Source of the DNA: Climacium dendroides
Taxonomy: Eukaryota; Streptophyta; Bryopsida; Hypnales; Climaciaceae
Direction of reading: 5' to 3'
Assembly: GCA_950106755.1 (NCBI GenBank)
Contig: OX467092.1
Location: 496,001-560,000, forward strand
DNA: 64,000 nucleotides
This document shows, piece by piece, positions 30,563 to 63,141 of the stretch. Position 1 is the first letter of the stretch. Each line of letters begins with the position of its first letter. Both the position numbers and the translations under genes were made by a program. Under the pieces are notes generated by a model. The model was not told where the DNA came from. It ran no database searches and saw nothing but the letters and a program-made list of their open reading frames with translations.

Positions 30563-31853
30563 GTTATAAGTTATTGAAGATTCTTTTAAATGATGGAGGA
30601 GGAGGTTCAACATTAGGGTTCCAATCTTTGGTAGTTGCTGGATACAAAGTCTGAGAAGGAACCATTTTGCATACTAGCTCAGCTTCATTTTAATGCATAG
30701 GGTAAATGTACCATTCAACCAATTGAATAGATGCAGCTTCTCCTTTGCAGCAGAAAGCAATAACTCAGGCTAATATGCGTGCAGCAAAAAAAATTACAAC
30801 TTCTACGCAGCAGGGTCACTATGTACTTGTGTTTGCTTCGGGTTTGGTTTGTTTAGATTTCCAATATCTTAGGGTCTATATATGCTTGGATTTGCTTAGG
30901 GTTTGCTTCATCATGGATTTCTGAGGTTCTTGTTGTCTGCCGAATTCATGTTTGTATACGGACATTGTTTGTTACTGTAGTTTTTTTATTTCAGAGTTTG
31001 TTGCTCTTATCATAGGGTTTGGCTGAGGGTCTATCTGTTCATAGGTTTGCTTAGGGTCTGTATGTGTTTTGGATTTGTGTGAGAAATTCCGAAAGAGTTC
31101 AGAAGTAGGCTTGCCCTTAAAACCCTAAAATATGACAAAATGCAAATTAGCGTGAGCCGCGTTGATTTAACAATATACTATCAGAGAAGCCAGACAATTT
31201 GACATAGCTAGGTAGCCTACAGGATAAATAGTTTGGAGATCACAGTGATGAACTGGAGTCCGTCACCTAAAACAAAAAACTGCATATCAACGCGAGCTGC
31301 GCTAATCTGCAATGTCCCCCTCAAAACATAAACTGACTAAGACCATATAATTGAACTATAATCATGGAATTCTGCCACGGTAATATCTCCAAACATGCGA
31401 ATCAGAGTGGCCCAATCTGAAGCATAGTAACACAATTCCATAGTATTTAAAAACCCTGCACTATTGATCAACGCGAGACGCACTGATCTGCAACGTCTCC
31501 CCTCGAAAAAACAGACCACCCCAGAGTACATAAAATAAATCCAAATATATGAATTCCACTAAGCAAATATATAACAACTATACACATCAACGCGACCCGC
31601 GCTGAATCGTCAGGTCTTATCGTAAAAGATAAGAAAGTAGGCAAATTGAGGTCATGAGGACAAAGAACCAAACCCAATAAAAACTAACCTCACCTTCATA
31701 AGTAGAGAATACCTCAACATCTACAATAGATAAGCAATGCCACAAGGCCGAAACGAACAACCTACAAACCATACGCAGATTAGTGCAACTCGCGCTGAAC
31801 CGATAAGTGCATTCATAACAAGCCACCTGACATATTATTATTCTTTTCGCAGA
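30563..31853 (+). other. Upstream region and presumed 5'UTR intron of locus A
   Basis: No coding region. It ends with a TTTTCGCAG acceptor directly before the ATG of locus A (31854), so much of it is probably an intron in the 5' leader. Five locus-A palindromes lie at 31146-31802. The donor may be GGTGAGTA at about 30467 in the last 355-bp unit. Confidence 0.45.
31146..31802 (+). repeat. Locus A palindromes, five copies in the 5'UTR intron
   Basis: 24-bp imperfect palindromes at 31146-31169, 31286-31309, 31467-31490, 31586-31609 and 31779-31802. Consensus half-sites are CAGCGCGA and TCGCGCTG, flanked by AT on the left and ATTTG-like bases on the right. Centre-to-centre spacing is 119-192 bp, and the sequence between copies is unrelated. 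Confidence 0.8.
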
Positions 31854-33320
31854 ATGGATCAACACAGGGAAGCACTGGAAATGTACTTTGACAGATGTGA
31901 TATTCAGTACCCTGAAGACCCCAACGAGATAGATGGATCCTTCATCGAGGGCGAGTACTGGGAGTTCAAACATCTGGAGAGGGTTGAAGCGTGGGGATTC
32001 CACATGATCCCCTTCAGAAACAATTTCTGCTTCGCGTACAAGTTCAAGAATGCGAAGGTGTTTCTAAACCTCTCTTACGAGGAGATGGTAAAAGATCTAG
32101 AAACGGACACCCTCCCCATGGTTAGAGTGAAGTGTGTGACAATGTTTCCCAACGTTGTCTCTCAAGACCAGTACCACTTCACAATCTGCCTAAACTCCAT
32201 CCTCATTCCGTATGTGATGACACCCCTCCTCGCAAGCCTAGAACCCACGCCGTTCTGGGACGAAATAAAGGAGTTGGAGAAAAAAATTGATAACAATGAG
32301 TGGCAGAATTCAGATGGCATGCCCCTGAATCACAAGAAGCTCTGCAGCAAGATCCGTGCCTTGTTCAAGGACTTCGATCAACTCAAAGGGAAGCTGGCAA
32401 TGCAGACCAAGTTAAGCAGGCCGAGATCCGTCTCAATGGACACCTCCAGATAGGGTGTGAGTCAAGGCTCCAGACTCAACAGCACGCAGGAATCCGGAGG
32501 CGCTCGGGGAACCAGAAATTCGAGAAAGTCGGTAGAGAAAACCCCGGAAAATAAGAAAGGGAAGAAAAGTAAGGCCTCCCCGTCCGTGCAGGCACCTCTG
32601 GCAAGGTCCTCTGAGGTATCTAAAGTTGCGGAGGTAAGTTACGTCGACGAGATGGCACATGTCCCTCATTCTCGAGCAACGGAAAGAAAGCCAAACTATG
32701 AAGAAGTAAGCAAAGTATACAAGAAGTTCTGGACCACTTGTGAGGACGCCTACATCTTCAAGACTGATGACAAGAAAGAGATTGACATCTCTCAACTAGT
32801 CCCACCTCCGGCAACATTCAACATCCGCTCGAAGGAGGACCGAATTGTCGAGGATTTAGTGAACTGGCTACTAAATATGCCCGACAAGAGCACGAGACAA
32901 ACGCTCTGCGTCATGTCGGTTGGATACAATGAAAAACCGAAGGAGTGGGCAGAGATTGAAAAAGGCGATTTCTACATCATCAATGGGCAGCACAACATGG
33001 CCGCCAGTAAGTGGATGATGGATGATGCCAACAAGGTGGACCGCACGGAGAGGGAACACTTCCGGAAATGGAAGTGCTTTGTGGTTTAGTCAAATGACAC
33101 AGAGAAGCTTAGGTTCATCTTCGCGTTCTACAATAGGACAAACCATTTCCAGGTTGCACAGCCGTCATGGGCAACGAATATCCTCGGAGCGCGGTCAGTG
33201 TGGGAGGCTATGGGGAAGCCAAGAAATCCTACGCAGGCAGTGTCCGTCGGGACCAACACGGCTACAAGACACACGGTTGAAGCAAGAAGAAACAGAGAGT
33301 CCTTTTAAGTATATATGCAT

Positions 33321-33344
33321 TTCAGCGCGGTTCACGCTGATGTG
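33321..33344 (+). repeat. Locus A palindrome in intron 1
   Basis: TTCAGCGCGG...CACGCTGATGTG: one copy, between exon ends 33308 and 33431. The matching locus B intron (60698-60823) holds two. Confidence 0.75.
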
Positions 33345-34796
33345 TCAAGTTTGGCTCAAGTCAACTAGCAATGCCAATTCAAATATCATTAACCACCTTG
33401 TCTAATGAAAGTGTTGTGCACGATCCTCAGGACTTCGAGAAAGCCGTCTTCTTGCGGTTCTCGATGATTGACGTCAACAAGAACCTCCGAATCGCAAAGA
33501 CAAAGTCCAAAGAGGAGAAGCTAAAGCTCACGAATGAGCTCAAGCTAATCACGGCCCCAGAGGAAGTGTACAAGCTCTGGAGCGAGGTTATCACTGCAGC
33601 CGCATTCGAAGAGCTCATCAACCCAGACACGCGGAGAAAGTTCAATGCAAGGGAAGGATAGAACCTAGATAACTACCTTCTAAACCGAGAATTCTTCAAG
33701 CATCTGGGAAACCTGAGCTACGACGAATTGGCGACACTCGCCAAGCATATGCTGAACCAGATGGGAGAGAAACGCACCTTGCCTTATCCGAAGGTGACGG
33801 TGAAGGCCGTGTCGTCTGTGCTGTAGAGTTGCTATACCGCCAGGGAGTGGTCGGAGAGGCGGAAGCGCAAGCACTTGGTGAAGAAAGAGCTTCACCAAAT
33901 CGATCATGAGCTTGGACTTATGAATGCCAAGAATGAAATCATCAAGGACAATTGGAAAGCATTCAAGACGTCGCGAATGTTTTCCAGAGCCACGATGGAC
34001 GTGCTCCTCGACCGACCTGGAGAGGCCTACTTCGGGAGAGCAAAATCCGTCAGCCAAAAGAATAAGACTTGTGCGGAGCTCTCCCCACAAGCATTCGAAT
34101 TTTTCAACGTATTTCTTCATCACAAGAATAAATTCGAGAAACCTACGGCCAAGGGTTATTACCGCCCATACGTTGAAAGCACTAATAGTTTCATGGAGTG
34201 GCCAGCGAGAGCATGGGATCCAGACACGTCGAAGAGAATGGCGTTGGGCGTGATCGACTTTAGGACATTACCTGGAGTCAAGAATAAGGGGAGCTCCATT
34301 GTGGACAGCCCTTACTTCAAGGAAGTAATGATGTCACTCTGCAAAATGCATGACCCGGTACTTCAGAATGTTCCCTCCTGGCTCTTTATTTGCGGCGATG
34401 AGAAGGAACAGGCACAGGTCCTGCACTTCGTGGAGTCGGACGAGATTCTGGCTTCCTTGTTATTGGACTACGCCACGTACAATGCGGGAAAGAATGACCA
34501 CCTCGGAGATATTTCGGTGTCGAATAAGCCGCCAAAGGTATTTCTGGTGTTTCTTCAGCATCTCAGCAACGCAATTGGAGTGGGTATTCCAGAGCAGTAC
34601 GAATGCCCGGACTCCAATCGGTACGTGAAGGCACGTGCCTACAGCGAGCTCAAATACCGGCTCCATAGCTTGGAGTTGCGCATGGAGTTCTATTTGTGGC
34701 TCGTGAAGAGTTTCTGCACTCCAGGGGGTTGCATCTTCTCCTATTTTGCGGGAGGCAAACTTACATGCGCTACAATGGTATGTCCCTTAACTGCCG

Positions 34797-34885
34797 ATTA
34801 GCGCGACTAGCGCTAATTTGTTTCCTTCCTCTTCAATTTCATGGTTTCACGCACTCGTCAATTCAGAGCAAGTCGCGTTGAATTG
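34797..34885 (+). repeat. Locus A palindromes, two copies in intron 2
   Basis: 34797-34820 (ATTAGCGCGACTAGCGCTAA core) and 34862-34885 (TTCAGAGCAAGTCGCGTTGA core). The matching locus B intron also holds two. Confidence 0.8.
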
Positions 34886-35957
34886 TCACTATCTACAATT
34901 GTATTCTAACCCTCTGCTTCTCTCTCTTGCAGATGTCATTTGTAGACGTGTACGCTGTTGGATTCGCAGTGGAATCCCCTAACTGGGAGAAAATCTGTTC
35001 GAAGGCCTACACATTGGACAAGGCAGATTTTCTCGACACTGGGTATCCCATCCAAAGTGGTGAAGGTCCCAGTTCCTCCTCCAAGCGGAAATTGAGATCA
35101 AGTCAGGAGTCTCCAGCTAAAAAGAAGGCGGCTCCAGTCTACGATGATGTAGAAGACATTTCCACCGATGAGGAGGAAGACGACATTATGGAGATGGATG
35201 ATCATAATGTAGGCATTGAAGAGATGCCCACACCAACAAGACGACACACCGACGTGCCGGGGTCGTCTACTTCATCCATGCTTCCGCCCTTATTGCAGAC
35301 ACCGTGGACGCCCACTCCTTCTAGACGGCCACAGAAGAAGAGGAAGGCAAATCCCATCACCAGTGTCGTCCAGCAGTTGGCCGAAATTCAAAAGTCAACC
35401 GCAGAATCTCTGGCGGCTCTGCAGAAGCAGACGGAGAATTCACAAAAGCAGATGGAGCTAGCATTGGCTCAAATGAGAGCCGACAATGCAAACAAGCAGC
35501 TTTTGAACATGGAGATGCACCAACGCAACACGGACTGGATGAAGGAGGAGTCCCGGCGGAACAGGGAGATCATACAGTTGTTAATGTCGAGGGTTAGAAT
35601 CCAACCTCTTGCTGAGCTACAGCCCGCGACGCAGTCGCCTCCGTTGATGCTGCAAGGCCAACCCTCTAGTTCCAACATCAGCAATGCCTCAAGCCCGGTG
35701 CACTCGGACAATGCGCCTCCACCTCTTCTTGGTGCGGATCCTGTCTCGATGCCACTTCCGCTAGCGGAGGAAGCTCCAGAGGCCATTGAACAGAGTGGTG
35801 TCGACGTCGGCAAGGGAGACACTGCAATGGAGGACGTTGGCATTGGGCACATCCTGCCAATGGATGATTCCGGGTCGACGCAAGCAAGTTCTGACCAACC
35901 CACCGAGGAACCACCTGCAGGTTGTGCCCAATGACCATTCAGTGTCCTGTGTGTAGT

Positions 35958-35981
35958 CTCAGTGCGACTCGCGTTGAATTG
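35958..35981 (+). repeat. Locus A palindrome in intron 3
   Basis: CTCAGTGCGACTCGCGTTGA core, between exon ends 35920 and 36152. The matching locus B intron holds one (41049-41073). Confidence 0.75.
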
Positions 35982-36477
35982 TATTGTAGTCTTTGGGCTA
36001 GAGATTCAATTGTAGATACAACATGCCGATTAGAAGCAATTCAGGTGGTACAGAAAATGTAGGACTAGTTTTGTAAATAAAAACTCATTTCATGAAATTG
36101 TAATAAATGGATTTCTCACGAAAACTATTTTTCCTGATTCTTGAATCGCAGGCCACCTGAATGTCGATTGCTTGCCTGAGAAAGGCCCTTCTGTTGTCGC
36201 ACATTCTCTTCCACCAATGCCTTCACCACACCCGAACGTAGATGAGGCACAACCAATGGATGAGCAATCGGTACTTCCTAGTCCTGCACTATTGGTAGTG
36301 GAAAACCAAGATGAACCTTCAGGTTCTACGCAGAGGAAGGTAAAATGCGCCCTCTTGTTTTGATGGACTCATTACTCTTCTACCTTCATTTTGAGCAATG
36401 ATGCCTTCTAGAATTCGTGTCATTTGGCGTGATTGGACACAATTGCTGCCGTTTGTTACCAAGGGTCCGATCTGCAG

Positions 36478-37143
36478 GGCTCTGATAAGGGATCCTCGGA
36501 GGGAGTCCATAGGTCATTGAGATCCGGGATGGCAGGGAAGTGGTTGAACGTCATCCTGGACCTCAATGGCATTCTATGTGTCACAGAAGATTGGAAGTCC
36601 AAGGGATCAGGGAATGCGTACAACCAGAAGTCGGAGCCACACTCGGCCACAATCGGGGCCATTGTAGGACCCAAGGCTGTCTACGTCAGGCCCAACACCT
36701 CCTCGTTCTTGAAGGAGTTAGGCAAGATAGCATTCGTCTCAGTGTGGAGTTCCATGAAGAAGTCCACCACTAATGAGATCTGCGCTTATCTGTTCCGAGA
36801 TGGAGGGTTGCCCTTCCAAGTTCTCGGGCAGGACGCATGCAAAACGTTGAAGCGCTGAGATGGAGCCGGCACGTGGATCCCCTATAAGGAACCGGGAACC
36901 GACAAAGCATTGTTCCTCAAGAACCTGGACGTGCTTTTCGCCGACTCCCGAACCAACTTCACTCCTGACAATACAATCGTAGTCGACGACAGCTGCCGGA
37001 AGCACATCATAAACAAACCGGAAAATGTTGTAGTCTCGGAGTCCTGGAGTAATAAGGGCAATGGAGACAAGGACACGTTCCTTCTTGGGGTTCTACTTCC
37101 TTGGTTTAACACAATATTCATTAAAATGAGAGTTTTCCAGTGA
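36478..37143 (+). pseudogene. Locus A C-terminal exon: FCP1/NIF-type HAD phosphatase-like domain
   Basis: KWLNVILDLNGILCVTEDW is HAD motif I, VYVRPNTSSFLKELGKIAFVSVWSSM-type sequence covers motif II, and NTIVVDDSCRKHIINKPENV is motif III with paired Asp. This is the FCP1-homology (NIF) fold, which dephosphorylates proteins such as the RNA polymerase II tail. The second motif I Asp, the general acid, is Asn here (DLNG), as in some plant FCP1-like proteins, so activity may be lost. TGA at 36856-36858 cuts the domain. The exon is in phase with the preceding linker exon (acceptor CTGCAG/GGC), which supports a fusion and not a separate gene. Confidence 0.7.
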
Positions 37144-37544
37144 AATGGGAGTTGAAGAAGAGACTTTCAACCATGAATTTAATATACTTGTACATCAATG
37201 ACTACCAGGAAAGCATTGCAATGACACAGAAAGCGCATACGGAAGGTACAGATTCCAAAATCGAAGGTCAAAATTGTGACTTCTTCATAATTTATAGGAA
37301 GTCATCAAATATACATGTATTGGATGTATGCACTATAAATATAGAGTAATCCATGTACTAAACTACTACTTCCATCATGGACTACACTTGTATAAGATAC
37401 ATATGATGTAAAATGTAGGGTTCAGGAAGCACTACGACTAAGCATTGGGACTTTTGTGAAATTGGCAATTGCGTCGAGAAGATGAAGGCTTCGTGACCAA
37501 AAGGTTATGAGCTTGCCTTTATCAACAGCAGAGAGAAACGTAGG

Positions 37545-37695
37545 GATTGTCAAAGCCCGGAAATTGAAGAGTTGAATACCAACTGTTACCCGACCTAATA
37601 TTCTCAGACATTGCACTAGAGAAAGTGCAATGCAAAAGATTATTTGGTGAGGCAACAGTTGTTATTCAACTCTACAACATCCGGGCTACGACAAC
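37545..37695. repeat. Foldback repeat 1
   Basis: The left arm AGCCCGGAAATTGAAGAGTT and following GAATACCAACTGTTAC pair with GGCAACAGTTGTTATTCAAC...CATCCGGGCT at 37651-37690. An inner hairpin, TTGCACT...AGTGCAA, lies at about 37610-37632. Confidence 0.7.
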
Positions 37696-37730
37696 GTACT
37701 GTCCATAATGACTATGAGGTCCACGATTGC

Positions 37731-38010
37731 CAGAGCCCCGGAAATTGTAGAATCGAATACCAGCTGTTCCCCTAGTTGAGCCAATTCGTGGTAGAAGAAA
37801 GCAAACATTATATAACTTTAACTCTCAGATATTCTTCGAATGTACTCTCACACACCACAATGTCCAAAAAGCAATGTATGAGTGTACGTTCAAAGAATAG
37901 CTGAGAGTAAAGGTTATATAATGTTTCCTTTCTCTTCTACCACGACTTGGCTCAACTATGCACATAGTCAGGTCTAAGACATCGACTCTACAACTTCCGA
38001 GTTTCGACAA
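37731..38010. repeat. Foldback repeat 2, same family, longer arms
   Basis: It starts GCCCCGGAAATTGTAGAATC, like foldback 1, and pairs with GACTCTACAACTTCCGAG near 38000. The inner arms CATTATATAACTTTAACTCT and AGAGTAAAGGTTATATAATG are complementary. Total about 280 bp. Confidence 0.75.
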
Positions 38011-38089
38011 CCCCATACATTATTCTCTACTATTGATAAAATTGGGCTCAAGGCCTTACTAAGGTTTAGGGTTTTTATTTTTCTACTCT

Positions 38090-38326
38090 CTATACAAACT
38101 TAGGGATTGTTGAGCCTACATGTACATAATTAGGACCTCTTCTACATACAATTGTACATGAGCTACAAGATGCAGTCCTCAATTTCTCCCGAGCCTTTAG
38201 AATTTCTTCTCTCCGACTGTATCCCCCCTTGTTAATCTGTCCGAGGTTGCTTCCATTGCGCTTATAACGACCTTCTCTTCTAGATGCCCCAACTGGGAAT
38301 TGAAACAGCAGTACAAAACGATCCAC
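38090..38326 (-). pseudogene. Fragment related to the 38.7-39.3 kb small basic protein
   Basis: Encodes RYKRNGSNLGQINKGGYSRR then EEILKAREKLRTA. This aligns with RHQRWNEYKKPNTGYSQGPEILKAREL near the end of the neighbouring frame, in the same order and strand. The upstream part is in another frame (38504-38280), so this copy looks broken. No known family recognised. Confidence 0.3.
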
Positions 38327-38685
38327 TGCGTTTCTGTTTCTTCAAACTCCCTTGTTCCAACGGAACCTGTGGACGTGGAATGGACTGCCCAAGAGCAATA
38401 ACTGCAACCGATTTTCCAAGCGGACTATTTGGAAACTTGAATTTCTCTTCCACTATGGACGTTGGATAATTCGCGTCTCCATAAAGCTCACGCCCATCAC
38501 CCAATAGTTTAGGGTCATCTCAGACCATCACCCATATATTGTTATAGAACATCATTACCGAGCAGTCCTAAATGTATAATGTATGAACCCCTAATATTGA
38601 CGAAAGACTATCACTTATAAATTCCCAACGTATACTTCTTTGTAGACTGTCACTCTACAATATGAACACATAATATGAACAAGTA

Positions 38686-39282
38686 TTATATGTGTGATTT
38701 ACATCGCTGTAACTCCCTCGCCTTGAGAATCTCAGGCCCCTGACTGTATCCTGTATTTGGCTTCTTGTACTCATTCCACCGTTGATGCCTCTGCCGTTGT
38801 AAGAACATGCGGTCCGATGTGTCAAGATGACGAGCATCGCTTCGAATTCTCTGCACCCCATCATGTGTCTTAGACATCCGGACGCTCCCTGACATGACAT
38901 ACCTGGGACGGCGTCTTGCACTATCACAAGCAGCTCCGATATGAGTATCACGAGATCCACCAGTATCATGAGATCCACGAGAGATCCCTGACTTGTTCCT
39001 TGGTGCAGGAATTTGTGTTGTGGCCTCGTCATAAAGCTTCTTTTTTGGTGCCATGTCTGATGCCACCGGCGATAACTCAGAAGCAAGTGGCCCCCTGAAG
39101 CGCAAAGGAGAAGGTGAGCAGGACTTTGGCAGACGTGGGCCGTTATTAGGCGGACTATCCACCACACCGTCATCCACGGGCTTAGTAGAATAGTCCATTG
39201 TGGAGTTTGCTGTTGCCGCCGAGCACAGAAAGTTCCCCCTGCTCAGGATTGCATATTGTCCATAGTCCAATATAGAATCCAC
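38686..39282 (-). CDS. Small basic protein of unknown function
   Basis: A 198-codon frame with ATG at 39282. It is rich in Ser, Pro and Arg, has a possible nuclear signal MAPKKKLYDE at its middle, and ends near YSQGPEILKARELQR. A shorter paralogue lies just downstream on the same strand (38090-38326), which argues that the frame is or was coding. No domain recognised. It lies between the 3' ends of loci A and B and may belong to either duplicated unit. Confidence 0.4.
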   Translation of the reverse strand: MDSILDYGQYAILSRGNFLCSAATANSTMDYSTKPVDDGVVDSPPNNGPRLPKSCSPSPLRFRGPLASELSPVASDMAPKKKLYDEATTQIPAPRNKSGISRGSHDTGGSRDTHIGAACDSARRRPRYVMSGSVRMSKTHDGVQRIRSDARHLDTSDRMFLQRQRHQRWNEYKKPNTGYSQGPEILKARELQRCKSHI

Positions 39283-39560
39283 CGACGCAACGCACGGAAG
39301 GTGATCATCTCCATCAGCTGAATTCCATATGTTCAGACTCTAGAAGCAAATCATATTTATATCATGACCACGAAATAGAACTGCATAGCTTTGAGAACAT
39401 GAAACACCATCCACAAACAAACCTAGAACGTGAATCAATCACACCATCCAAGCAACTAGGAAGCTGCAATCGACCTAATTTGAGAGGCGAGCACTAAACC
39501 ATGACTATTTTATTAGAAGCATAAGGATTGAAATTACAAATCTCCAGAAGGTAGGCCTAA

Positions 39561-39585
39561 GTCAGTTCGACTCGAGCTAAATTAG
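39561..39585 (-). repeat. Locus B palindrome downstream of the FCP1-like exon
   Basis: GTCAGTTCGACTCGAGCTAA core, about 160 bp past the stop at 39742. It is the only clear copy outside a presumed intron. Confidence 0.6.
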
Positions 39586-39741
39586 ACCAGAGCATGGAAA
39601 TCGAGAACCTATGCCTCCCTTAGCGTAGTCCTAACGAATGCAAGAAGATGCCTGCACGACCTCCATCAACTTATCGTACTCCCTCTTTTGTTTTCTATCG
39701 TCACAGAGCATGCGGCGTCCAATTCGATTGGCTGCATTCTC

Positions 39742-40392
39742 TCAGAAGGACTTAAGTCCCTCTTCACGAGCCACGTGAAGATTCTGGAACCAAGGGAGCA
39801 GGACATCCAAGAGGAAAGTGTCCTTCACACCGTTACCTCTGTATGACCATGACTCCGGTAAAATGACGTTTTCAGCATTGTTAAGAATGTGCTTCATGGG
39901 ACTGTCATCCACTATCACGGTATTTTGGGACGAGAACCTCCCCCGGTAGCCACTGAACAAGGTCTCCAAGTTTTTAAGGAAGAGTTCCTTATTTGTGCCT
40001 GGCTCTCTGAATGTTGTAATTCTCAAGTTTTTTTCCCTACATTTCAGAGTCGTACAAGAGGTCTGTCCTAGTTTGACTACCGGTAGGTCGAGCCCCTTAA
40101 AGAGATAGGCGGCCACTTCATCAGTGGTGGAAGTCTTCATATTGCTCCACACTGAAATTGTAGCTATCTCTCCTATCACATGTAAGAAATCAGAACACCC
40201 GAGACGGACATACACTAGCTTTGGCCCCACAACTATTAGCTCAATAGCAGAGTGCGGTTGGAATGCGTCCCCAGTCTGTTTGGCCCAGCCCTTATACTTG
40301 TGATCTTCACAGGCGCACAATACCCCATTGAGGTCCAGGACGACATTGATCCACTTGTCTACAGCCCTGGACTCCAATGGAAGATTGACCAC
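39742..40392 (-). CDS. Locus B FCP1/NIF-type HAD phosphatase-like domain
   Basis: Open for 216 codons. It has KWINVVLDLNGVLCACEDHK (HAD motif I), SVWSNMKTSTTDEVAAYLF (motif II region) and NTVIVDDSPMKHILNNAENV (motif III, paired Asp). As in locus A the second motif I Asp is Asn. In contrast to locus A this domain has no internal stop. Sequence identity to locus A is spread along the whole domain. It is most likely the C-terminal part of the fusion; a free-standing protein is possible, since the preceding splice junction is unclear. Confidence 0.65.
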   Translation of the reverse strand: MVNLPLESRAVDKWINVVLDLNGVLCACEDHKYKGWAKQTGDAFQPHSAIELIVVGPKLVYVRLGCSDFLHVIGEIATISVWSNMKTSTTDEVAAYLFKGLDLPVVKLGQTSCTTLKCREKNLRITTFREPGTNKELFLKNLETLFSGYRGRFSSQNTVIVDDSPMKHILNNAENVILPESWSYRGNGVKDTFLLDVLLPWFQNLHVAREEGLKSF

Positions 40393-41048
40393 CTCCTTAT
40401 GTCTTGGAAGATCACGTGGAGGATTAGATTCTTGATAAATAATGGACGAATGTGGAGCTAGTTATTATCCTGCATTCATAGCCTCTGGACATTGTGCTAA
40501 TTGAAACGGTCGATCAGATTTGTAGGTGTCATTAAACAAACACAGAATTCAGAATGTAAAATTCAAGACATACCTTCTGCTGCGAGGTCTCGGCTGTCTC
40601 CGCAGTAACATCCCTTGTCGTAGCGGTCGGCTCGAGTATCATGACCTCGAGAAGATCGGCATCAGGTATGACATTGTCTTCAAGTACAAGAGCAGCAGTA
40701 TTTAAGGATTCAGGCTTGTCCTCTTTGAAGGTGACATTCTGATTCGTCAGCTCGAAGACAACGTCAGGCACATGCTTCGATGAGGTCGGTTCGGAAGTGA
40801 GTACACCTGATGCAACAATAGGTGGCAACAAATCTACAACATTGACAGCGCCTGCAAGTCAGGAGTGTACAAAGGAAGTGTTGTAAGGAATCCGAGTATT
40901 ACCGCTTTACATAAAAATGTTTTGATGTACATACACAATGTCTAAAAATTTTGAACTCCATGGTTCAGTCCACTAGAAGTTCAGCTATGTCAAAATTGTT
41001 GAGTTGTCTATGAGATAACTCTAAAACTACATACAACCCACGTCAAAA

Positions 41049-41073
41049 ACCAGATCGAGTTGAGCTAAAACTG
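41049..41073 (-). repeat. Locus B palindrome in intron 3
   Basis: CAGATCGAGTTGAGCTAAAA core, just after the donor at 41105. One copy, as in the matching intron of locus A. Confidence 0.65.
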
Positions 41074-42059: not shown

Positions 42060-42117
42060 ATATCAGTTCGACTGGAGCTAAATCAACGGACAATTAAGCT
42101 CAATTCGAACTGAAGCG
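42060..42117 (-). repeat. Locus B palindromes, two copies in intron 2
   Basis: TCAGTTCGACTGGAGCTAAA at about 42062 and TTAAGCTCAATTCGAACTGA at about 42094, in the intron between 42018 and 42165. The matching intron of locus A also has two. Confidence 0.75.
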
Positions 42118-42570: not shown

Positions 42571-42575
42571 GGGAC
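42571..42575. repeat. Target-site duplication, left copy
   Basis: GGGAC, identical to 59754-59758. Removing the element and one copy restores the open exon of locus B. Confidence 0.92.
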
Positions 42576-50066: not shown

Positions 50067-50108
<42 letters not shown>

Positions 50109-53500: not shown

Positions 53501-56500
53501 AGAATTGCATCATCAGAATCATCATAGGTTGTTAATGGGGTAAAATATTCTCCAGGTTCAACACACTGATAGGGAAAAGGACTTTCAGATATATTTTTAG
53601 AAGATTCTTCAAAAGAGGTATTATACTCATTATCAGAAGAATTTGCTGACGTAATACTCGATCCATCATCTTGGGTTTCCCCATGATAAATAATCGGGAA
53701 CATAGGTAGTGTTAGTTTTTGTTTTCCTTTTCCAATAGTTATTAGGCCCTTTCCCCAATCATCTTTTACATTGGCCATATGTAACCAAGGTCGGCCAAGT
53801 AAAATTGAATAGGAAGAAATGGCATTTGGAACTTTGAATATAATGTAATCAACTTTATATTCCAAGTTACCAATAAAAGTAGAAATCTGAGATAACATAC
53901 CTAAAGCTTTAACTCTACTTTGATCCGCCATTCGTAAAATTATGGGCGTAGGGGTCATTGTTGTTAATCCTAATTCATCCATAGTTTCTTTACTCATAAG
54001 GTTAACGCTAGATCCTCCATCAATTTGAGCTCCTGAGATTAGGGTGCCATCAATTCTTAATTCAATAGTTGGAGCACCCGGATCTAAGGAAACATCATGA
54101 ATTTCATTTTCCTTAACCCTCTTTTTTACTAAAGCATGGCTAAGTTCACTCCTACACTTAGGTGAAATAGCTAGAAGTTGCTTTAGTGATATTTGTGGTT
54201 GTATAGAGTCCAAATTCTCTAGAATATTATAAGATTTCATTCCTACTACCAATCTCATCAAACGTTTATTAATTCTTTTAAATTTAGGACTATTCTTACT
54301 AGATAATGAAATTGGGAGTCTTTTCATAGGTATTTTAATTGTAGATGGAATTAAAGGTGCAATGGGAATTTTTGACATTGGTACATTGTTTCCTAAACTT
54401 TTTGTGGTTTGTGGTGAAGGCACATGTGATAAAAAAGGTTGATTTTTCAAGGATGAAATTGGTGACAATGAATCTCCATCTAAATATTCATGTTCACTTC
54501 GATCATCCTCTGAATTAGTTTGAAAGTCTCCTTTTGAATTTAATTTATTTTTTAAGGTAGCACTACGAGTATTAACTACAAAGGTAGGTTGTTTAAGTTG
54601 GAGTCCCATTGTTTGAGTCTGTAAGGTTTTAGATATTTTATGAACTTCTTTTTCTTTAGATTCATCCTTAAATGTCACTTGTTTCCCTTGATTCCAATCT
54701 CTCTCAGAAGGTGGAAACTTAGGAAGATCCTCGCGACAATCATTAGCTATATGTCCTGGCTTTCTACATCTTCCACATAAAGGGACATAACCTTCTTGCT
54801 TTCTAGGATTAGGACAATCATTGGCGTAATGGCCTAATTCACCACATCTATAACATACCACATGTTTCCCTTTTTGTGGTGGGTTATATTGGTGTGTATT
54901 CGGATTATAAGGTGGTCCGTTCCAAATAGGTGGTGAATTATATTCATCATTCCATCTGGGACGATTATCATTTGGTTTATAAGGGGGGTTAGCTCTAGGT
55001 CTTGTGAATGGTCTTTTATTCATGTTAGCTTGATTTCCTCCTTTATTAATCCAAGGCCTATTATTAGGAGAACTTTCCACCTGTTGAACACTTTGTAGAT
55101 TCCAACATTTGGTAATGTTATGATTTCCACCACAATAAGAACACTTAAGGATTTGGTTTGGAGGAGATGGACATTCATTAGCCATATGTCCATAACCCTT
55201 ACAGGTTGAACACCATACATTAGAGCGGGTATTATTAGGTTTAAAGCATTTAGGTCTACCCCCCGCTAATTTTACCTCCATGTTTTGTAATTGTTGAGTA
55301 AGTTTTTCTATTCTATCCAAATTAGGGTCAACAATTGGTTTTTCATTGGATGCCTGTTCTACAATAGCTTTCGATGGGGCTGCAACCATAGGTTGAGGCT
55401 GGGGTCTCGTATAAGGTGGTGGATATAAAGATATATTTTGGTTCATAATTGGACGAATTCGCCCTTGTAATTGATTTGGTGTCACTCTAGGTTGAGGTTC
55501 TAAAGTTGGATAAATTGATTGGTCTGCATATGGCATATAGTCTTCATCAATCCTAGACTCTTCCCATATTTTTGCATGACGCAAGCCTTCTAGTAAAGTG
55601 TTAGGGCGTTTTTCTTTAGTATAAAGTTTTAATTCATAGGGGTACAAGCCCCCCACAAATAAACTTGTTAGAAAATCTTCAGGCATATTGTGATTAGTCC
55701 ATCTATTTAATAAATCTTCCATTCTGCCATAATAGGAATCTACACTCTCTTCTATTCCCATTTTTATATGTCTTAGTCTTTCTCGTAAACTTTCGTTAAA
55801 TCCAATCGGTCGAAATTGTGCAAGAAAGGCATTTTTTAAAGCATCCCAATTTACAAAAGTAGCTTGATTTTGTCTTTGATACCAAGCAAAAGCATTGGCT
55901 TGTAGGGTTGCGGGAAATGTGACCAAATAATCTTCTTGGGGAATTCTATTAGCTTGACAACATGCTATAAATCTAGATAAATGAAAATTAGGATCAGTTC
56001 CTATTTGGCCATAATAAATAGGCATAGGGGCAAGATTCAAAGGTCTTTGATTTGCCATTGAGTTATTTTGATTTTGGCTCGACGGAGGTAAAGGAGGAGT
56101 AGAAGGTGAATTATTCGAATTTGATGAGGAAGTAGAGTACTCTCTAGAGCTATCAGACTCTTGATTACCTCTAGGAAAATTTAAAGGATCAAAATCTTCT
56201 AAATCTCCTATAGAGTCAAAAACAAAAGATTTGCTTTTTTGTAAATTTGTAGGCACAAAATTTTGTTTAATAACTTGGACTCCCTCTCTAATAGTTTGTA
56301 TATTAGATTCTGCTTGACTAAACTCTTCGTTTAGAAGAAGTGTGGTATTTAAATCGTCATCACTTTGTTTAGAAGTATAAGTAGGAGTACTAAGGAGACG
56401 TTCTAGTTCTTGGGCAATTTTCTTATTTTCCTCTTCACTCTCTGTTCTGTCTCGTTGGTTTTGAATTTTAATTTCATCTCCCTCATTTTGAGTAAAATTA

Positions 56501-56685
56501 ATCTTTGGTGAAGAAGAAGGAGATATTGAAGGTGACGTTTGATGACCTTCTTCACGATGAGAATGAGAGTGTAATTTATCACATGATGGTAATCCCCTTC
56601 GACGATCCCAAACTTTGGCACGTTTATCCCTAGCGAGTTTTTGTAATTCTTTTTTAAGTTTAGATGGAGAAGGTACTCCCGACAT
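50572..56685 (-). pseudogene. Gag-pol polyprotein of the Athila/Tat-like element, integrase broken
   Basis: One frame from ATG 56685 to 50572, open for 1,787 codons to a TAA at 51320-51322, then open again in the same frame. Gag: [18 protein letters not shown]. Zinc knuckles: [28 protein letters not shown] and two more. Protease: [11 protein letters not shown]. Reverse transcriptase: [20 protein letters not shown] and FLDDF at the YxDD position. RNase [17 protein letters not shown]. Integrase: an HHCC finger ending CDPCQRIG, then WGIDFVGP for the first acidic residue. The stop falls inside the integrase core. Beyond it the second catalytic Asp is Asn (SNRGTHF, codon 51229-51231), while the Glu motif RANGQTEKTNG is kept. 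This copy cannot make active integrase. Confidence 0.92.
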
Positions 56686-56829
56686 TAATTTTCTCCATTC
56701 AATGGAAACAAAATCTCACCAAATATACATATATATGTATTTTCAGAATTAATTTAATTTAGTTTAATTTTAAACTTTTATTTATTTATTTTGAATTTAT
56801 TTTTTCTTTCTATTTTTTGTTTTTGTTTT

Positions 56830-56834
<5 letters not shown>

Positions 56835-56881
<47 letters not shown>
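56835..56881. repeat. TA microsatellite
   Basis: About 23 TA dinucleotides in a row, in the leader between the pre-gag frames and gag. Confidence 0.95.
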
Positions 56882-56885
<4 letters not shown>

Positions 56886-56894
56886 TTTTAAATT

Positions 56895-57389
56895 TTAAAG
56901 ACAAATTAATTTAAAATTTAGATGGGGAGATTTTCTTTTTGACTGTAAAAATTCAGGGATAAAAGGGGTGGATAAGAGATTAATTGGTCCATAAATCAAG
57001 ACATATGTTTTTCTCTCAATTTTGACTCCATTCCAACCCGCATAAATCCTTGGTACTTGGTTCTTAGTAATTGCTTTTAATTTTCTATATTGTAGAAATA
57101 GATAATGTAGTGAAGAATCTAAAAGTAGTTCTCCTTCTAAAACTTTTACTCTATTATTAAATTCTTCACTTCCATTCCAAAGTTTATTAAGAATAATACG
57201 TTTTATATCCAAAGGCAATACATCAATTTGATCACAAAGATCTTTATTTCTAGGATAATTTCCAATGATTCTAAATCCTTCACCCAAATATGCTCCCTTA
57301 TAAAGCCTATATAATGCCTTGAAAAGACATGGCCCAGAAAAGAAATCTTCTAAAATTTCTGGGACTTCCCAAGGAAAAGTATAATTCAT
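56895..57389 (-). CDS. Pre-gag small frame of the retrotransposon, unknown function
   Basis: 164 codons, ATG at 57389, starting MNYTFPWEVPEILEDFFSGP and with RIYAGWNGVKIERKTYVLIY near its end. Fully open and in sense with gag-pol. No known domain recognised. Its position between the primer site and gag resembles the ORF1 of Ogre/Tat elements, whose role is also unknown. Confidence 0.5.
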   Translation of the reverse strand: MNYTFPWEVPEILEDFFSGPCLFKALYRLYKGAYLGEGFRIIGNYPRNKDLCDQIDVLPLDIKRIILNKLWNGSEEFNNRVKVLEGELLLDSSLHYLFLQYRKLKAITKNQVPRIYAGWNGVKIERKTYVLIYGPINLLSTPFIPEFLQSKRKSPHLNFKLICL

Positions 57390-57459
57390 CTACACAAAAT
57401 TATTACGACTTTGCCAAGACCTCCCTTTACTATTTTCATATACTTCCACATTACCTAGT

Positions 57460-57843
57460 TTAATTTATTGTATGGAAATAAATAAGGGTGTCAATAACAA
57501 TTCGCAGTTGTTTTAATTCTGGAAGAGATGTAGGTCTAATTTGTAAAATTTCAAGAAGTCTAATAGTATTCAAAAATTCAGGTTCATACGGCAATGGTTT
57601 TATGGGTTTGCAATTTAAATTTTGTCTAGACCGGTTTAGAGTATCAAAGTCTTGTTTCTTTCTACAAGTTTTCTTAACATGACCATTAGCGCCACAAAAA
57701 TGACATTTAATATTTTCTCTATGAGTTTTATTTTTAATCTTTGTTTTAGTAATGTTTTTTGATTTATTTTCAAGGCTTTTCCTACATAAAAAATCTAATG
57801 TACTTTGAATCGGAAAATTACTCCTAGAACTACTATGATCCAT
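57460..57843 (-). CDS. Pre-gag CCHC zinc-knuckle protein of the retrotransposon
   Basis: 127 codons, ATG at 57843. It is Ser/Lys-rich, with a single knuckle CHFCGANGHVKKTC of the retroviral CX2CX4HX4C type near residue 48. It lies 150 bp inside the primer site and is in sense with gag-pol. Likely a nucleic-acid-binding accessory protein. A separate knuckle protein ahead of gag is unusual. Confidence 0.55.
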   Translation of the reverse strand: MDHSSSRSNFPIQSTLDFLCRKSLENKSKNITKTKIKNKTHRENIKCHFCGANGHVKKTCRKKQDFDTLNRSRQNLNCKPIKPLPYEPEFLNTIRLLEILQIRPTSLPELKQLRIVIDTLIYFHTIN

Positions 57844-57995
57844 TATTTCTTATATTTATCATAGAATTTGATTTGATTTGATTATGATCAAATTTGAAAT
57901 CCTTATTCACCACTAATCTTTTCATTAAATTCTTCTAGACTTAATTTCAAAAAGAAAGATTCTACCTACATTTTAGCTACCACTTAGCCGAGCTT

Positions 57996-58013
57996 TCCCC
58001 GGCAGCGACGCCA
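57996..58013 (-). promoter_or_regulatory. Primer-binding site, tRNA-Asp type
   Basis: Minus strand TGGCGTCGCTGCCGGGGA, three bases inside the 5' LTR. It matches the complement of the plant tRNA-Asp 3' end with two mismatches. tRNA-Asp is a usual primer of Athila elements. Confidence 0.75.
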
Positions 58014-58016
58014 AAA

Positions 58017-59753
58017 TGTAGTATAGTTTTTCTAAGACAAAACCAAGGCAATTCCAAAAAGGTTTGTTCAAGGGAAAGCTCAAATTAGCTTAGTGTTTTA
58101 ATTAGCTAATGTCACTTTGTAGGTAAATTATGTTGTTAATCTTAATGTATTAAGGTATTTGGTATATTTCATATTCTATTTAGGTATGGGAAAGGAGTTC
58201 TCTTTCTAATTTCCGTCCAATTATAAATATAAAATTCTAACCACTAAATCCGTCTCGGTCTTATCTTAAAATAAAATGTAAATTTAAAAGTGTGAATTAA
58301 GGGCACCTGCATCCACAAATCTCATACTTTGAATTCACAAAAAAATAATACAAATATATCCATTTGCAACCTGCATCACACAATACATATTTTGAACTTT
58401 GAAAATTCGGTTTAACCGAGAGTTCATTAATTGTTTTTCATAAATATGATTTCAACATGTAAGTCGCTTTGAGCGCTAATGACTCAATTACTTTAAGTAA
58501 ATAAAACACATACCCTTTTTAGGGATTAAAAACAACCAAGGACATCGCTTTAAGCGAATGCATTAACACCCAAATGCTTTAAGCAATTCTAAAATTTCCC
58601 TTAAGGGATATACAATATGCTTTGTTAAATTATTTAAAGAGCTTCAAATTCTTTCCTTTTCAAGTCTCCGGTCTTCATTCGATTTTGTTTTTTCCTATCT
58701 TTAGCTTTAAGCTTCCTCGATATACATCAACGAGTTATCTTGGATCTCCTTTTTTTCTCCAATTGCAATACTAACTCTAAATTATGCTTTCTAAATTTAC
58801 ACAACTAAATATAAATTCTAATAAATAAAATAAAATAAATTTAAATGCACATTCAAACATTCAATCTTATACACATGTCTTCAATTGGAATACCATTTAT
58901 TAATTATATGAATAATCATTCAATATTTAGAATGTACATCATTTGTTTGTAATTGTTCAATAACTTCTATTCACTAGAAATGTAAAATCATTTTCCAACT
59001 CAAAATAAATCTCAATCTTAAGTTTTGTTTTAAACATACATGTCCATTTAAAATACAAAAATATTCCAATACTTTAATGAAAATAATTACCGATCGATGG
59101 TAAATTATTAAATTTGAAAATAAAGTCCAATCTCTGAATCACTCAAATCCAAATCACTCCTTGGTTTATAAACAATTTCCAATCACTGGAATTATTAAGT
59201 CAATCACTAACTTAATATTTTATTTCTCTTCTACTTCAAATTTTGCTTTGAGCATTGACATAAAAATTCTCTTAAGAGATAAATTATAACTGATGAACAA
59301 AATCCACTCCACACATAATCCAATTCTCTTAAAGAGACTTTCCAAAATAAAAATGCTCAAGGCAATAATCCTCACGATTAAACTTCATGCTTTTAGCAAT
59401 AAATACCATCACTTAAGTGATTAATCCACACAAAAACGGAATAACATCTATGAATCTATAACACAATGCAAGAAAAATGTGACCTCACGTCACTAACACA
59501 AGAGAGAATTAAAAAGAGAGAGAAAAGAATGAGAGAAGAGAAACTATTTATCATGATCTTCCTTAAACACCCCTTCCAATCTCTTGATAAAAACCCGTCA
59601 AAGTCCATAACTGCTCAAGCCAAAAAGTCTTTTCACACTTTAACTTCAAATATCATCACATTGACACTTAATTACCCAAAACTTAAAACATATAATCCAT
59701 TTCACACTCAAAAAACAAAATTTAACTAAAAAAATAAAATTGTCTTAACTACA
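58017..59753 (-). repeat. 5' LTR of the Athila/Tat-like element
   Basis: 1,737 bp, same ends as the other LTR. It carries T, A and T (59467, 59521, 59612) where the 3' LTR has C, G and C. Two of the three differences are CpG to TpG. Confidence 0.95.
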
Positions 59754-59758
59754 GGGAC
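59754..59758. repeat. Target-site duplication, right copy
   Basis: GGGAC, identical to 42571-42575. Confidence 0.92.
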
Positions 59759-60730
59759 CTCCTCCAGCAGGGGCTTGCGCTTCCCCATCAACGACAGCAT
59801 GACGGTGTTGAAGTAGGGAATCGCGATTGTGCCCTTCTGCTTGGACAACACTCCCGAAATCAAACGGAAGTCAATGACCCCCACTTTCAGATCAGCTGGA
59901 GTGTCCACAGTCCACACACCGGTTGGCCATGCCGTGTGTCTGTCGTCCTTGATGTTGTATGGCGCATAGTACGCCACTGTTGACGGCGGGACGAAATTCT
60001 TTCTCTCTCTCAGGAAGACCTTGAAGAACTCAGCAGCATGCTTAGAAATTTCTTCTGTGGACTTATTCTTGGACTTCAACTGCTTAATCTCCGAGAAGAA
60101 CTCCTTGCCAGGCCTTTCGAGGAGAACATTCATTGTGGCCGAGGTCACGAAATGTTTGGACTTAAACTCCTTCCATTTCTCCGGCACGACCTCATTGTCC
60201 GCGTTCAGGAGTCCGAGTGACGGGTCAATTTTATTCAACTCCTTCTTCACGAACTGTTTTCGTTTGCGCCTCTCAATCCAGGCACTCGATGAGTAGCAAC
60301 TTTCCAAAACTGATGATGACTGCTTGATCGTCACTTTTGGATGAGGCTGCTTTCTTTTGTCGCCAGACTTATTCAAAATATGGTTGGCGAGCTTCTTCAG
60401 GTCCTCATACGTGAGATTCCCGAAGAATTTGAAATACTCCTTATTGAGCATTCCGTTCTCCGTTTTCCATGAAGGCTTGGCGTTGAACTTCTTGAGCGTG
60501 TCTGGGTCAACAAGCTCGCCATGTGCCGCACTAGAGATGACCTCACTCCAGAGGTTGAAGACTTCATCTGGTGCTGTGATAATTTTTACCTCGTTGGTTA
60601 TCACCAGACTATTTTTTGCATCTTTTCCTTTAGCCTTGGTCTGACCCTTTGCAACGTCGATCATGGAGAACCGCATCTGCATGGCCTTTAGGAATTCCTG
60701 CAACGAATTGTCACATTGTCTGACAGTTAA

Positions 60731-60818
60731 TGAATGAGCTGGACTGGAGCTGAACTACTACGGGGTTTGGTGGGAGGGACATATCCCAGTGCAAATTCAA
60801 CTCGAGTCGAGGTGAATG
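60731..60818 (-). repeat. Locus B palindromes, two copies in intron 1
   Basis: ATGAGCTGGACTGGAGCTGA at about 60733 and TTCAACTCGAGTCGAGGTGA at about 60796. The second ends a few bases from the splice donor (60823). Confidence 0.7.
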
Positions 60819-62305
60819 CTTACCGCGTATTTCATCTTATTGATGTGCACCTCCTTGGACTGTCGGGAGCTTGTAACGGATCCAGAGGAGGTGTCATCCT
60901 TGGGGTTCCGCGGTTTCCCCATCTCCTCCTAGACCTTCCGTGCCCCAAGAATGTTCGTGGCCCACAATGGCTGGATTGCTTGAAAGTGGTTCACGCGGTT
61001 GTAATACGTTGAAATGGATCGCAAAATTTCAGCGTCCTCGGTCCACACAATGTAGCAACTCCATGCTCGGTAGTTGTCGACGATCTCGGGTGCGACATTG
61101 TACTTGGGGTCCTGCATTAGTTTGCTTGTCCACACATTGTGCTGCCCGTTTATAATGTAGAAATCGCCGTCCTTGATTTCTTCCCACGAGTCATCACCGT
61201 CTCTTGTGGGCTTGTTCACGGGCATCAGGCAGAGGGTCTGCCGATTGCTGTGGTCTGTCATATTTACAAGCCAGTGCATCATGTCTTCGACGATGTGATC
61301 CTCTTTGCTTCAGATGTTCAGCGTGGCTGGTGCCTGAATAAGTTTGTCGATGGGAAGGGTCTTCTTCTCCATCTTGTACAGGAACACGTCCGTGCAAGCA
61401 GTCCAGAACCTCTTATAGGCCTTGTTGGACTCTTCGTAGTCCGGCTTCCTGTTCACCCGCAAGGACTCGGGAATGTCACTGAAGTCGCAGGCGATGTCGT
61501 CAACGTCGGACTGATCACCCGATTTGTCCATGGACTTCTGCTGGGAGGAAGAGGCAAGGTTACTGGTTTGCCTTTGTTGTCTCCCGGGATCAGCAGGCTT
61601 TTTGTTTCGTTGCCCCCTCCTCTGTGTATTCGCAGGAGGTTGCTTGTCAGTGGAGATCTGACTCCCTCCTTGGCTCTCCACATTCAAGGACACGGTGCGG
61701 GCAGTTTTGCTTTCCCGCTCTATGGTTATTTTTGTTTTTAGACAAGCAAAGTCTTGGAACATTTGCCTGAGCTTCCTGCATAGTTTGTGGCCTGATATTG
61801 GATCTCCGTTTTCTTTCAAGAAGACCCTCTCGTTCACCTTCTCCTCGAGCTCCCTCATGTGGTCCTGGAACGACGTAGTTTCAAGACTTTGGATGAGATT
61901 TGTCACGCGGAATGGTATTTTCTCGGAGTTGAAGTGGATGGTGAAGTTGTATTGATCTTTGGCGGGGACACCCAAGACAACCGTTTGACAGTGAATTTTA
62001 ATCGTTGGCGGAATGTCTTCTACCACGTCCTTCACTTGCTCTTCGTAGGACATGGGGAGGAAGCAGCTCATCCCCCTGTATTTCACGCAAAAGGCAATGA
62101 GCTCTGTACAGGGGATCATGGTAAGGCTCCAGCACTCGACCCTCTCGGGGTATGTGAATTCCCAGTAGTCCCCGTCGTCGAGGAAGTCGTCCCCGTCATC
62201 CTCACTGACCTTCAGGACTTCTGTCCTTGTGAAGTATTGTTGCAACTTTTCAACTTGGCTGTCCATCTACACGTTGTAGTGTGGTCAACGTGTTAGCTTA
62301 TTTAT

Positions 62306-63141
62306 TTAGCTCGATTCGAGTTGATCGCCTTTCATCACTACCTCTACTCAGGTCATCTATCTGGTTCTCACTTCTTAATTGTGCCCGTCAGTTTACATGG
62401 ACATTACTCTCGGAGGTGCACCTTCTTATATTTAGCGGAGGCTCAGTGGTGTTTTAATGGGTTTTTGTCTATACCTCAGCGCAGTGTTTTTTTGTTTCTG
62501 TTATGAGTGGGCTTATCATTTAGGTTTCCCTTGCGATATCAGTGATTTTTTCATTCTGTCGTTTTTTCCAGTGTTTCTCCCGACTAGTGATTTTACGTGA
62601 TGTCCTCTGTCTGTTTTTTCCGATTTTCGCTATCTCATAATACATAGTCTTTTATATGGATCATCTTTTTTAGGTGACTATGGTGTGTTTGGTTTATGAT
62701 CAGCTCGATTCGAGCTGATCGTCAATGAGCTTCTTGCGTCATAGAGTGACCCCCATGTTCTCTCTACCTGATTAAATCCCCTCGTTGTTTGGTTCATTGT
62801 TTCATTTTGTTGTTGATTATTCTCTATTTGATTTTCTTTGGTTGTTTTAGTTCGATTCGAGCAGTATTATTATTTATTTACATTGAACTACTATTTATAT
62901 TCTACATGAAGTCGACTCTGATTTTTAGGTTTTTTAGACGTTCATCATTTTCTAATGAGCTCGATTCGAGCTGATTCTACAGGTTGCTACAACGTTCAGC
63001 ATGTTCTCGCAACGGTCCTACGACTAGTAATTAGCTCGAGTCGAACTGATTATGTGGTTCTAATTCCTGCATATTCAGCTCGAACCCATCTGATTATGTA
63101 CATTGCACTTTTGATATTCAATGGTGTTCGAGCTGAATTTG
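62306..63141 (-). repeat. Locus B palindromes, seven copies in the 5'UTR intron
   Basis: Copies at about 62306-62329, 62698-62720, 62845-62868, 62953-62976, 63028-63054, 63072-63097 and a partial one at 63119-63141. The copy at 62698-62720 is a perfect 23-bp palindrome: GATCAGCTCGA, a central T, then TCGAGCTGATC. Consensus half-site CAGCTCGA. The sequence between copies is unrelated. Confidence 0.8.

What the first reader, a model, noticed from the sequence alone, without database searches (positions are those of the whole stretch)
31146..63141. Two locus-specific families of intronic 24-bp palindromes with different half-sites
Locus A has nine copies with half-site CAGCGCGA and locus B has about thirteen with CAGCTCGA. 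Nearly all lie in introns, at matching positions: 5'UTR intron (5 and 7), intron 1 (1 and 2), intron 2 (2 and 2), intron 3 (1 and 1). Flanking intron sequence is not conserved, yet every copy in a locus shares that locus's half-site. Positions are old, but sequences changed together, as expected if a site co-evolves with a locus-encoded binding protein or is homogenised. The host gene encodes a ParB-like domain, and ParB proteins bind palindromic parS sites. The site count and intron placement are seen; the binding idea is inference.
Basis: partly seen in the sequence, partly recalled or inferred. Interest (0 to 1): 0.92.

Follow-up and report, generated by a model that had tools for sequence, protein, structure and literature searches.

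The report
Moss transposon's own family-specific control sites
Large jumping-DNA elements in what appears to be a moss genome carry about twenty copies of a short mirror-image DNA site each, in introns and upstream regions; the site's core differs from family to family, as expected if each family makes a protein that recognises its own copies.

Summary
Locus A is a partial and locus B a complete copy (nested in A) of a ~19.6 kb DNA transposon with inverted terminal repeats, 4-bp target duplications, a divergent DUF7869 transposase gene and a five-exon accessory gene ending in an NIF/FCP1-like domain. The palindromes (19-bp core, 8-3-8) recur in fixed places: upstream of the transposase, upstream of the accessory gene, and soon after the 5' splice sites of its introns 1-3. 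Four families use different cores: TCAGCGCG (A), TCAGCTCG (B), TCAACTCG (D), TCAGGTnG (F, with one exception). All 62 exact sites in 24 fetched loci lie in or near element sequence. Sites mutate 3-4 times less than noncoding DNA within 150 bp, but not significantly less than more distant noncoding DNA. Between A and B the transposase (86-91%) is conserved, while the accessory protein (29-55%) and site cores diverged. Best reading: operators of an element-encoded regulator, most likely the accessory protein, working like Arabidopsis VANDAL/VANC anti-silencing with unrelated proteins. Binding and anti-silencing are inferred. ParB was not supported; a hypomethylation footprint was not found; whole-genome half-site counts could not be run.

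The parts
30809..37107 (+). Locus A: part of a family-A element (accessory gene and 5' region); further pieces at 6044-7450 and 22943-25815; no transposase match in the window; resumes beyond the nested B element at C41:569862
   Evidence: blastn to copies C1:10503903-10523550 and C2; tblastn of transposase
31147..31798 (+). Five family-A palindromes in the accessory gene's 5' region (31147, 31287, 31468, 31587, 31780)
31854..33308 (+). Exon 1 (N-terminal domain and INGQHN motif), with in-frame stops
33322..33340 (+). Intron 1 palindrome, TCAGCGCGGTTCACGCTGA
33431..34777 (+). Exon 2, middle domain, with in-frame stops
34798..34881 (+). Intron 2 palindromes (34798, 34863)
34933..35920 (+). Exon 3, low-complexity/coiled region
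35959..35977 (+). Intron 3 palindrome
36535..37107 (+). NIF/FCP1-like part, interrupted by insertion of element B
   Evidence: Pfam PF03031 E=2.3e-7 on a typed 107-aa piece; junction
37104..37107 (.). Target-site duplication GTTT (other copy at C41:569858-569861)
37108..64000 (-). Element B, complete, nested in A; continues to C41:569857 (36,750 bp, including a 17,178-bp LTR retrotransposon)
37108..37132 (.). Terminal inverted repeat of B (one end), AACACAATATTCATTAAAATGAGAG
39562..39580 (-). B palindrome downstream of the NIF exon
39772..40356 (-). B NIF/FCP1-like part
   Evidence: Pfam E=4.2e-14 on a typed 206-aa piece; tblastn
41050..41068 (-). B intron 3 palindrome, degraded (score 14)
42063..42113 (-). 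B intron 2 palindromes (42063, 42095)
42150..42575 (-). B exon 2, distal part (tblastn range)
42576..59753 (-). Ty3-type LTR retrotransposon inside B exon 2: LTRs 42576-44312 and 58017-59753, 99.8% identical, TSD GGGAC
59754..60697 (-). B exon 2, proximal part
60735..60815 (-). B intron 1 palindromes (60735, 60797)
60824..62266 (-). B exon 1, with in-frame stops
62306..63136 (-). Seven family-B palindromes in the accessory gene's 5' region (62306, 62700, 62847, 62956, 63031, 63075, 63118)

Best explanation
The palindromes are operator sites of a family of ~19.6 kb DNA transposons, bound as DNA by a protein that the element itself encodes, most probably the accessory (NIF-domain) protein. Bound upstream of the transposase, upstream of its own gene and in its own introns, the protein would keep the element's genes active or counteract silencing, specifically for copies carrying the matching core. 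Families diverge when the protein's specificity and the site core change together; new cores spread through the element by duplication or conversion of short site units. SHOWN: element anatomy, site positions, family-specific cores, fewer substitutions in the sites than in noncoding DNA beside them, and the contrast between conserved transposase and diverged accessory protein. INFERRED: that a protein binds, that it is the accessory protein, and that the effect is activation or anti-silencing.
For: Transposon: matching inverted ends with TSD ACAT (C1 copy) and GTTT (B), B nested in A's NIF exon. Same slots: array upstream of the transposase in A, B and D; accessory 5' region in A, B and D, and an array about 3 kb upstream of the gene in F; introns 1-3 in all four. 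Read by eye, the first intronic site begins roughly 8-40 nt after the 5' splice site in A, D and F (introns 1-3) and in B intron 1. Cores: position 6 G in 34 of 38 half-sites (A, C1 copy), T in 36 of 38 (B), T in 52 of 52 (D, with position 4 = A in 41 of 52); F TCAGGTnG. Constraint, substitutions other than C/G transitions: A 5/999 in sites vs 95/4573 in noncoding DNA at 1-50 bp (Fisher p=1.9e-4) and 36/1778 at 51-150 bp (p=9e-4); B 5/818 vs 68/3553 (p=0.006) and 34/1756 (p=0.009). Not the transposase: A and B transposases are 86-91% identical while cores differ and accessory exons are 29-55%; sites lie at least 2.2 kb from either end of the complete A and B elements. DNA rather than RNA: on the sense strand G.U mismatches (60) are no commoner than A.C (72) in 179 sites. 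Other species: 2 of 4 metagenomic homologues whose ORF seems to run into intron 1 end in FSSTR(A/P), which TTCAGCTCGACTCGA would encode. VANDAL21 parallel: motif arrays upstream of the transposase and in accessory-gene introns, one-base motif types between subfamilies, transposase much more conserved than VANC (PMC5735166; passages and sections).
Against: No binding data. No recognisable DNA-binding domain in the accessory protein; its fold prediction failed. The constraint is relative to noncoding DNA nearby: against noncoding DNA more than 150 bp away it is weaker and not significant (A 117/10348, p=0.075; B 111/11566, p=0.45), although sites are as low as coding sequence. Expected trace of anti-silencing not found: transitions at CG and CHG sites are 5-10% in and far from sites, with no dip near them. 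Exceptions to one core per family: hybrid sites downstream of A's NIF exon, B-type intron 3 site in F. Cores do not track accessory-protein distance: D (30-49% to A) has a core closer to B's than the nearer F (32-61% to A) has. In D alone G.U (12) exceeds A.C (7). Array and accessory gene could have been swapped in as one block, so their association need not mean functional matching.
Confidence: 0.5

Rival explanations
1. The palindromes are transposase-binding sites, like the subterminal repeats of CACTA or Ac elements (recalled), used in transposition or autoregulation.
For: An array sits in the transposase gene's 5' region; the transposase model gives integrase and DDE-transposase rows, Mos1, TnsB and IstA rows reaching into its N-terminal half.
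Against: In the complete A and B elements the sites start about 3.7 kb from one end and stop about 2.2-2.5 kb from the other. The transposase is 86-91% identical between A and B although cores changed in each slot. Many sites lie in introns of the other gene.
Confidence: 0.15
2. The sites bind a host transcription factor or chromatin protein, recruited by the element as promoter or intronic enhancer.
For: Upstream and intronic positions are typical of regulatory sites; constraint says nothing about who binds.
Against: All 62 exact sites examined are in or beside elements, so no host use was seen in the listed matches, which cover about 15% of the genome. A single host factor does not explain concerted switches to four cores.
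Confidence: 0.16
3. The sites act as RNA hairpins near 5' splice sites, controlling splicing or stability.
For: Intronic sites start roughly 8-40 nt after the 5' splice site; an 8-bp stem with a 3-nt loop is possible.
Against: No overall preference for G.U over A.C mismatches on the sense strand (60 vs 72). The largest arrays lie upstream of the two genes.
Confidence: 0.05
4. No function: the sites are a repeat unit homogenised within each family by tandem duplication and gene conversion.
For: Array units recur at about 85 bp (three sites of A) and 108 bp (F); most F sites share an AATTGCAC-like flank. Homogenisation probably spreads new cores. The substitution rate in sites is not significantly below that of noncoding DNA more than 150 bp away.
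Against: Sites mutate 3-4 times less than noncoding DNA within 150 bp in both families tested, and hold their slots while the surrounding sequence is unalignable between A and B.
Confidence: 0.13

Closest known systems
VANDAL21/VANDAL6 transposons and their VANC anti-silencing proteins (Arabidopsis; PMC5735166, PMC10398659)
   Same: Accessory gene beside the transposase; motif arrays upstream of the transposase and in accessory-gene introns; one-base motif types between subfamilies; transposase far more conserved than the accessory protein; some sites in tandem units.
   Different: Transposase carries DUF7869 (VANDALs are Mutator-like, recalled); the accessory protein carries an NIF/FCP1-like domain and no match to the VANC domains DUF1985 or DUF287; the site is a 19-bp palindrome, not the 9-base YAGTATTAY; binding and hypomethylation are shown for VANC, not here.
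En/Spm TnpA and MuDR MURA (as described in a passage of PMC10398659)
   Same: Element-encoded protein linked to loss of methylation on its own family.
   Different: As recalled, TnpA sites are 12-bp subterminal motifs; here sites are palindromes at least 2.2 kb from the ends of the complete A and B elements.
Bacterial ParB-parS (recalled)
   Same: Clustered palindromes near a gene for a candidate binder; an INGQH motif reminiscent of ParB-like folds.
   Different: No ParB profile match at E<=10; eukaryotic intron-containing gene.

Membership tests
TIR DNA transposon | Terminal inverted repeats with target-site duplication | tested here: met
   AACAC(A/T)ATATTCA-like ends; TSD ACAT (C1 copy) and GTTT (B in A)
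TIR DNA transposon | DDE/RNase H-like transposase | tested here: inconclusive
VANDAL/VANC | Motif arrays upstream of transposase and in accessory-gene introns | tested here: met
VANDAL/VANC | Motif type differs between related families | tested here: met
   exceptions in A and F
VANDAL/VANC | Transposase more conserved than accessory protein | tested here: met
   86-91% vs 29-55% between A and B
VANDAL/VANC | VANC domains (DUF1985, DUF287) in the accessory protein | tested here: not met
   No such Pfam match in 10 homologues at E<=10; 3 of 10 have NIF
VANDAL/VANC | Protein binds motif and removes DNA methylation | not testable with these tools
   Indirect deamination test showed no dip near sites
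ParB-parS | ParB domain in the protein | tested here: not met
   No ParB match by Pfam or PDB sequence profile at E<=10; fold prediction uninformative
Subterminal transposase-binding repeats | Sites within a few hundred bp of the ends | tested here: not met
   At least 2.2 kb from either end in the complete A and B elements

The most novel reading that the evidence does not exclude
Moss DNA transposons independently evolved a VANC-like, sequence-specific self-recognition system from unrelated parts: an accessory protein with a Pol II CTD-phosphatase-like domain binds intronic and upstream palindromes of its own family only, counteracting silencing, and families diversify by concerted switching of the palindrome core together with the protein.
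Probability: 0.37. Interest if true: 0.85.

Novelty: new variant of a known kind. Interest (0 to 1): 0.66.

Why it matters
If true, self-directed anti-silencing by transposons arose more than once in land plants, from different proteins, and reached the same layout: sites upstream of the transposase and in the accessory gene's own introns. Four families with different cores at the same slots give a natural series for asking how a protein and some twenty scattered sites change specificity together. P. patens, a laboratory moss, encodes homologues with the same layout, so the idea can be tested at the bench. It would also give a role to an otherwise unexplained transposon-borne NIF/FCP1-like domain.

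Tried and rejected
ParB/methyltransferase identity: searched and not supported; the fold of the accessory protein was too poor to search. Transposase superfamily not named: a paper search for DUF7869 found 0 papers; a search for 4 of 5 terms around Academ matched 589 papers by loose word-start matching, of which 10 were listed and none opened.

Hypomethylation footprint: transitions in CG/CHG context near sites were not lower than elsewhere. Copies may have decayed mostly after silencing, so this is weak evidence either way.

Constraint against distant noncoding DNA: not significant in either family (run when checking this report). For that reason the odds of the best explanation were lowered from 0.55 to 0.50, those of the no-function rival raised from 0.10 to 0.13, of the host-factor rival from 0.15 to 0.16, and the novel case lowered from 0.40 to 0.37.

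RNA hairpin: no overall wobble preference. Satellite as carrier of the sites: the ~174-bp array of copy C1 holds no half-site with up to one mismatch. Viral origin: 15 stretches in viral contigs matched a peptide pattern, none encoded a relative. Homologue tails: P0006 and P0008 show no clear site.

Prior description: paper searches listed no title that I recognised as describing these elements; only PMC5735166 (abstract, section 5 part 1, section 9, passages) and PMC10398659 (abstract, passages) were opened. Papers outside that open-licence library were not searched.
Full report
OBSERVATION. The conserved unit is a 19-bp core, TCARCKCGA-N-TCGMGYTGA, i.e. two 8-bp arms and a 3-bp centre, with weaker symmetrical flanks.

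THE LOCI ARE TRANSPOSONS. The genome (412.6 Mb, 123 contigs; window = C41:496001-560000) holds related copies. The C1 copy runs from 10503903 to 10523550 (19,648 bp) with ends AACACAATATTCA and AACATAATATTCA and TSD ACAT. Element B (window 37108 to C41:569857) lies inside the NIF exon of element A, with TSD GTTT. B is 36,750 bp long because a 17,178-bp Ty3-type LTR retrotransposon (99.8% identical LTRs, TSD GGGAC) sits in its exon 2; without it B is about 19.6 kb. Element A in the window is partial: no transposase match was found there.

FOUR FAMILIES, SAME SLOTS, DIFFERENT CORES. A: TCAGCGCG. B: TCAGCTCG. D (C2:10294-10332k): TCAACTCG. F (L027, L032, L033): TCAGGTnG, best sites within GTGCAATTCAGGT...ACCTGAATTGCAC. 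Sites recur in introns 1, 2 and 3 in all four. Read by eye, the first one begins roughly 8-40 nt after the 5' splice site in A, D and F, and in B intron 1. F is the weakest case. A generic 8-3-8 scan gives 5, 4 and 6 sites in L032, L027 and L033 against 1.35, 1.5 and 0.55 in shuffles, and some rows of each are spurious. At F-score >=13, L032 has 5 against 1 in ten shuffles. Some F sites are degraded, and intron 3 of both F loci keeps a perfect B-type site. In single reference elements position 6 is G in 34 of 38 half-sites (A), T in 36 of 38 (B) and T in 52 of 52 (D). Over all copies at score >=15 both arms agree with the family type in 49 of 64 (A), 71 of 77 (B) and 38 of 38 (D) sites. The score treats G and T alike at that position; A or C there costs a point, so such sites are under-sampled.

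RESTRICTION TO THE ELEMENTS. The scan pattern had 1,030 forward and 1,009 reverse matches, against 2 and 4 for the reversed control. Only 100 places were listed. All 100 fall into the 24 loci fetched, which hold 62 distinct sites: 34 inside DNA aligned to the A or B element, 27 within 1.5 kb and 1 within 1.6 kb of a transposase or accessory match. The rest of the genome was not examined.

CONSTRAINT. Leaving out C/G transitions, substitutions against the family consensus in A are 5/999 in sites, 95/4573 in noncoding DNA at 1-50 bp (p=1.9e-4), 36/1778 at 51-150 bp (p=9e-4), 117/10348 beyond 150 bp (p=0.075) and 175/25697 in coding sequence (p=0.69). In B they are 5/818, 68/3553 (p=0.006), 34/1756 (p=0.009), 111/11566 (p=0.45) and 150/25792 (p=0.81). 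So sites change as slowly as coding sequence and 3-4 times more slowly than noncoding DNA beside them, but the contrast with distant noncoding DNA is not significant. Sites were defined on the consensus, which may favour well-kept sites slightly. Sample: 5 A and 9 B copies, most of them partial.

WHO READS THE SITES. Between A and B the transposase is 86-91% identical and the element ends 82-92% at DNA level. Accessory exons are 29-55%, the transposase 5' region is unalignable up to about the start codon, and the core has switched in each slot. This points away from the transposase and towards the accessory protein, but a block exchange of array plus accessory gene would give the same picture. 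Against an RNA reading: G.U 60 vs A.C 72 mismatches over A, B and D (in D alone 12 vs 7).

WHAT IT WORKS LIKE. VANDAL21 in Arabidopsis has the same layout: VANC21 motifs upstream of the transposase and in introns of VANC21 and VANB21, C- and T-type motifs in subfamilies, spread by tandem repeats, transposase much more conserved (PMC5735166). There, binding and loss of methylation are shown. Here they are inferred, and one indirect test was negative: transitions at CG and CHG sites were 5-10% in every distance class. The parts are not related by domain as far as Pfam shows, so this is likeness of layout, not membership.

OTHER MOSSES. Of four metagenomic homologues whose reading frame seems to run into intron 1 (P0006, P0008, P0009, P0010), two carry FSSTRPE and FSSTRAK a few residues past the presumed splice point; TTCAGCTCGACTCGAGCTAAA encodes FSSTRAK (translation by hand). 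Their DNA and their species were not seen.

LIMITS. Protein and further pattern searches of the genome failed from then on. The ParB and methyltransferase labels remain unproven. Confidence: transposon identity about 0.97; element-encoded binder about 0.65; accessory protein as that binder with an activating or anti-silencing role 0.50. The last was lowered from 0.55.

Noticed in passing
42576-59753: Young Ty3-type LTR retrotransposon (LTRs 1,737 bp, 99.8% identical, TSD GGGAC) with a 1,787-aa gag-pol-like ORF.
   Followed up: partly
6791-7450, 22943-25061; C41:562-564k: A ~174-bp satellite array is part of both A and B elements (about 80% alike between families) and is partly inverted in the window; role unknown.
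   Followed up: partly
29513-30561: Three tandem copies of a ~355-bp unit (85-92% alike) just upstream of locus A.
   Followed up: no
L013:6232-7563: A distant relative of the accessory gene's middle domain (about 29% identity) just outside the left end of the C2 family-A element.
   Followed up: no
3968-5728: Ty3 gag-protease ORF.
   Followed up: no
L027:4363, L033:3134: Family F keeps a perfect B-type palindrome in intron 3 while its other sites are TCAGGT-type: the main exception to one core per family.
   Followed up: partly
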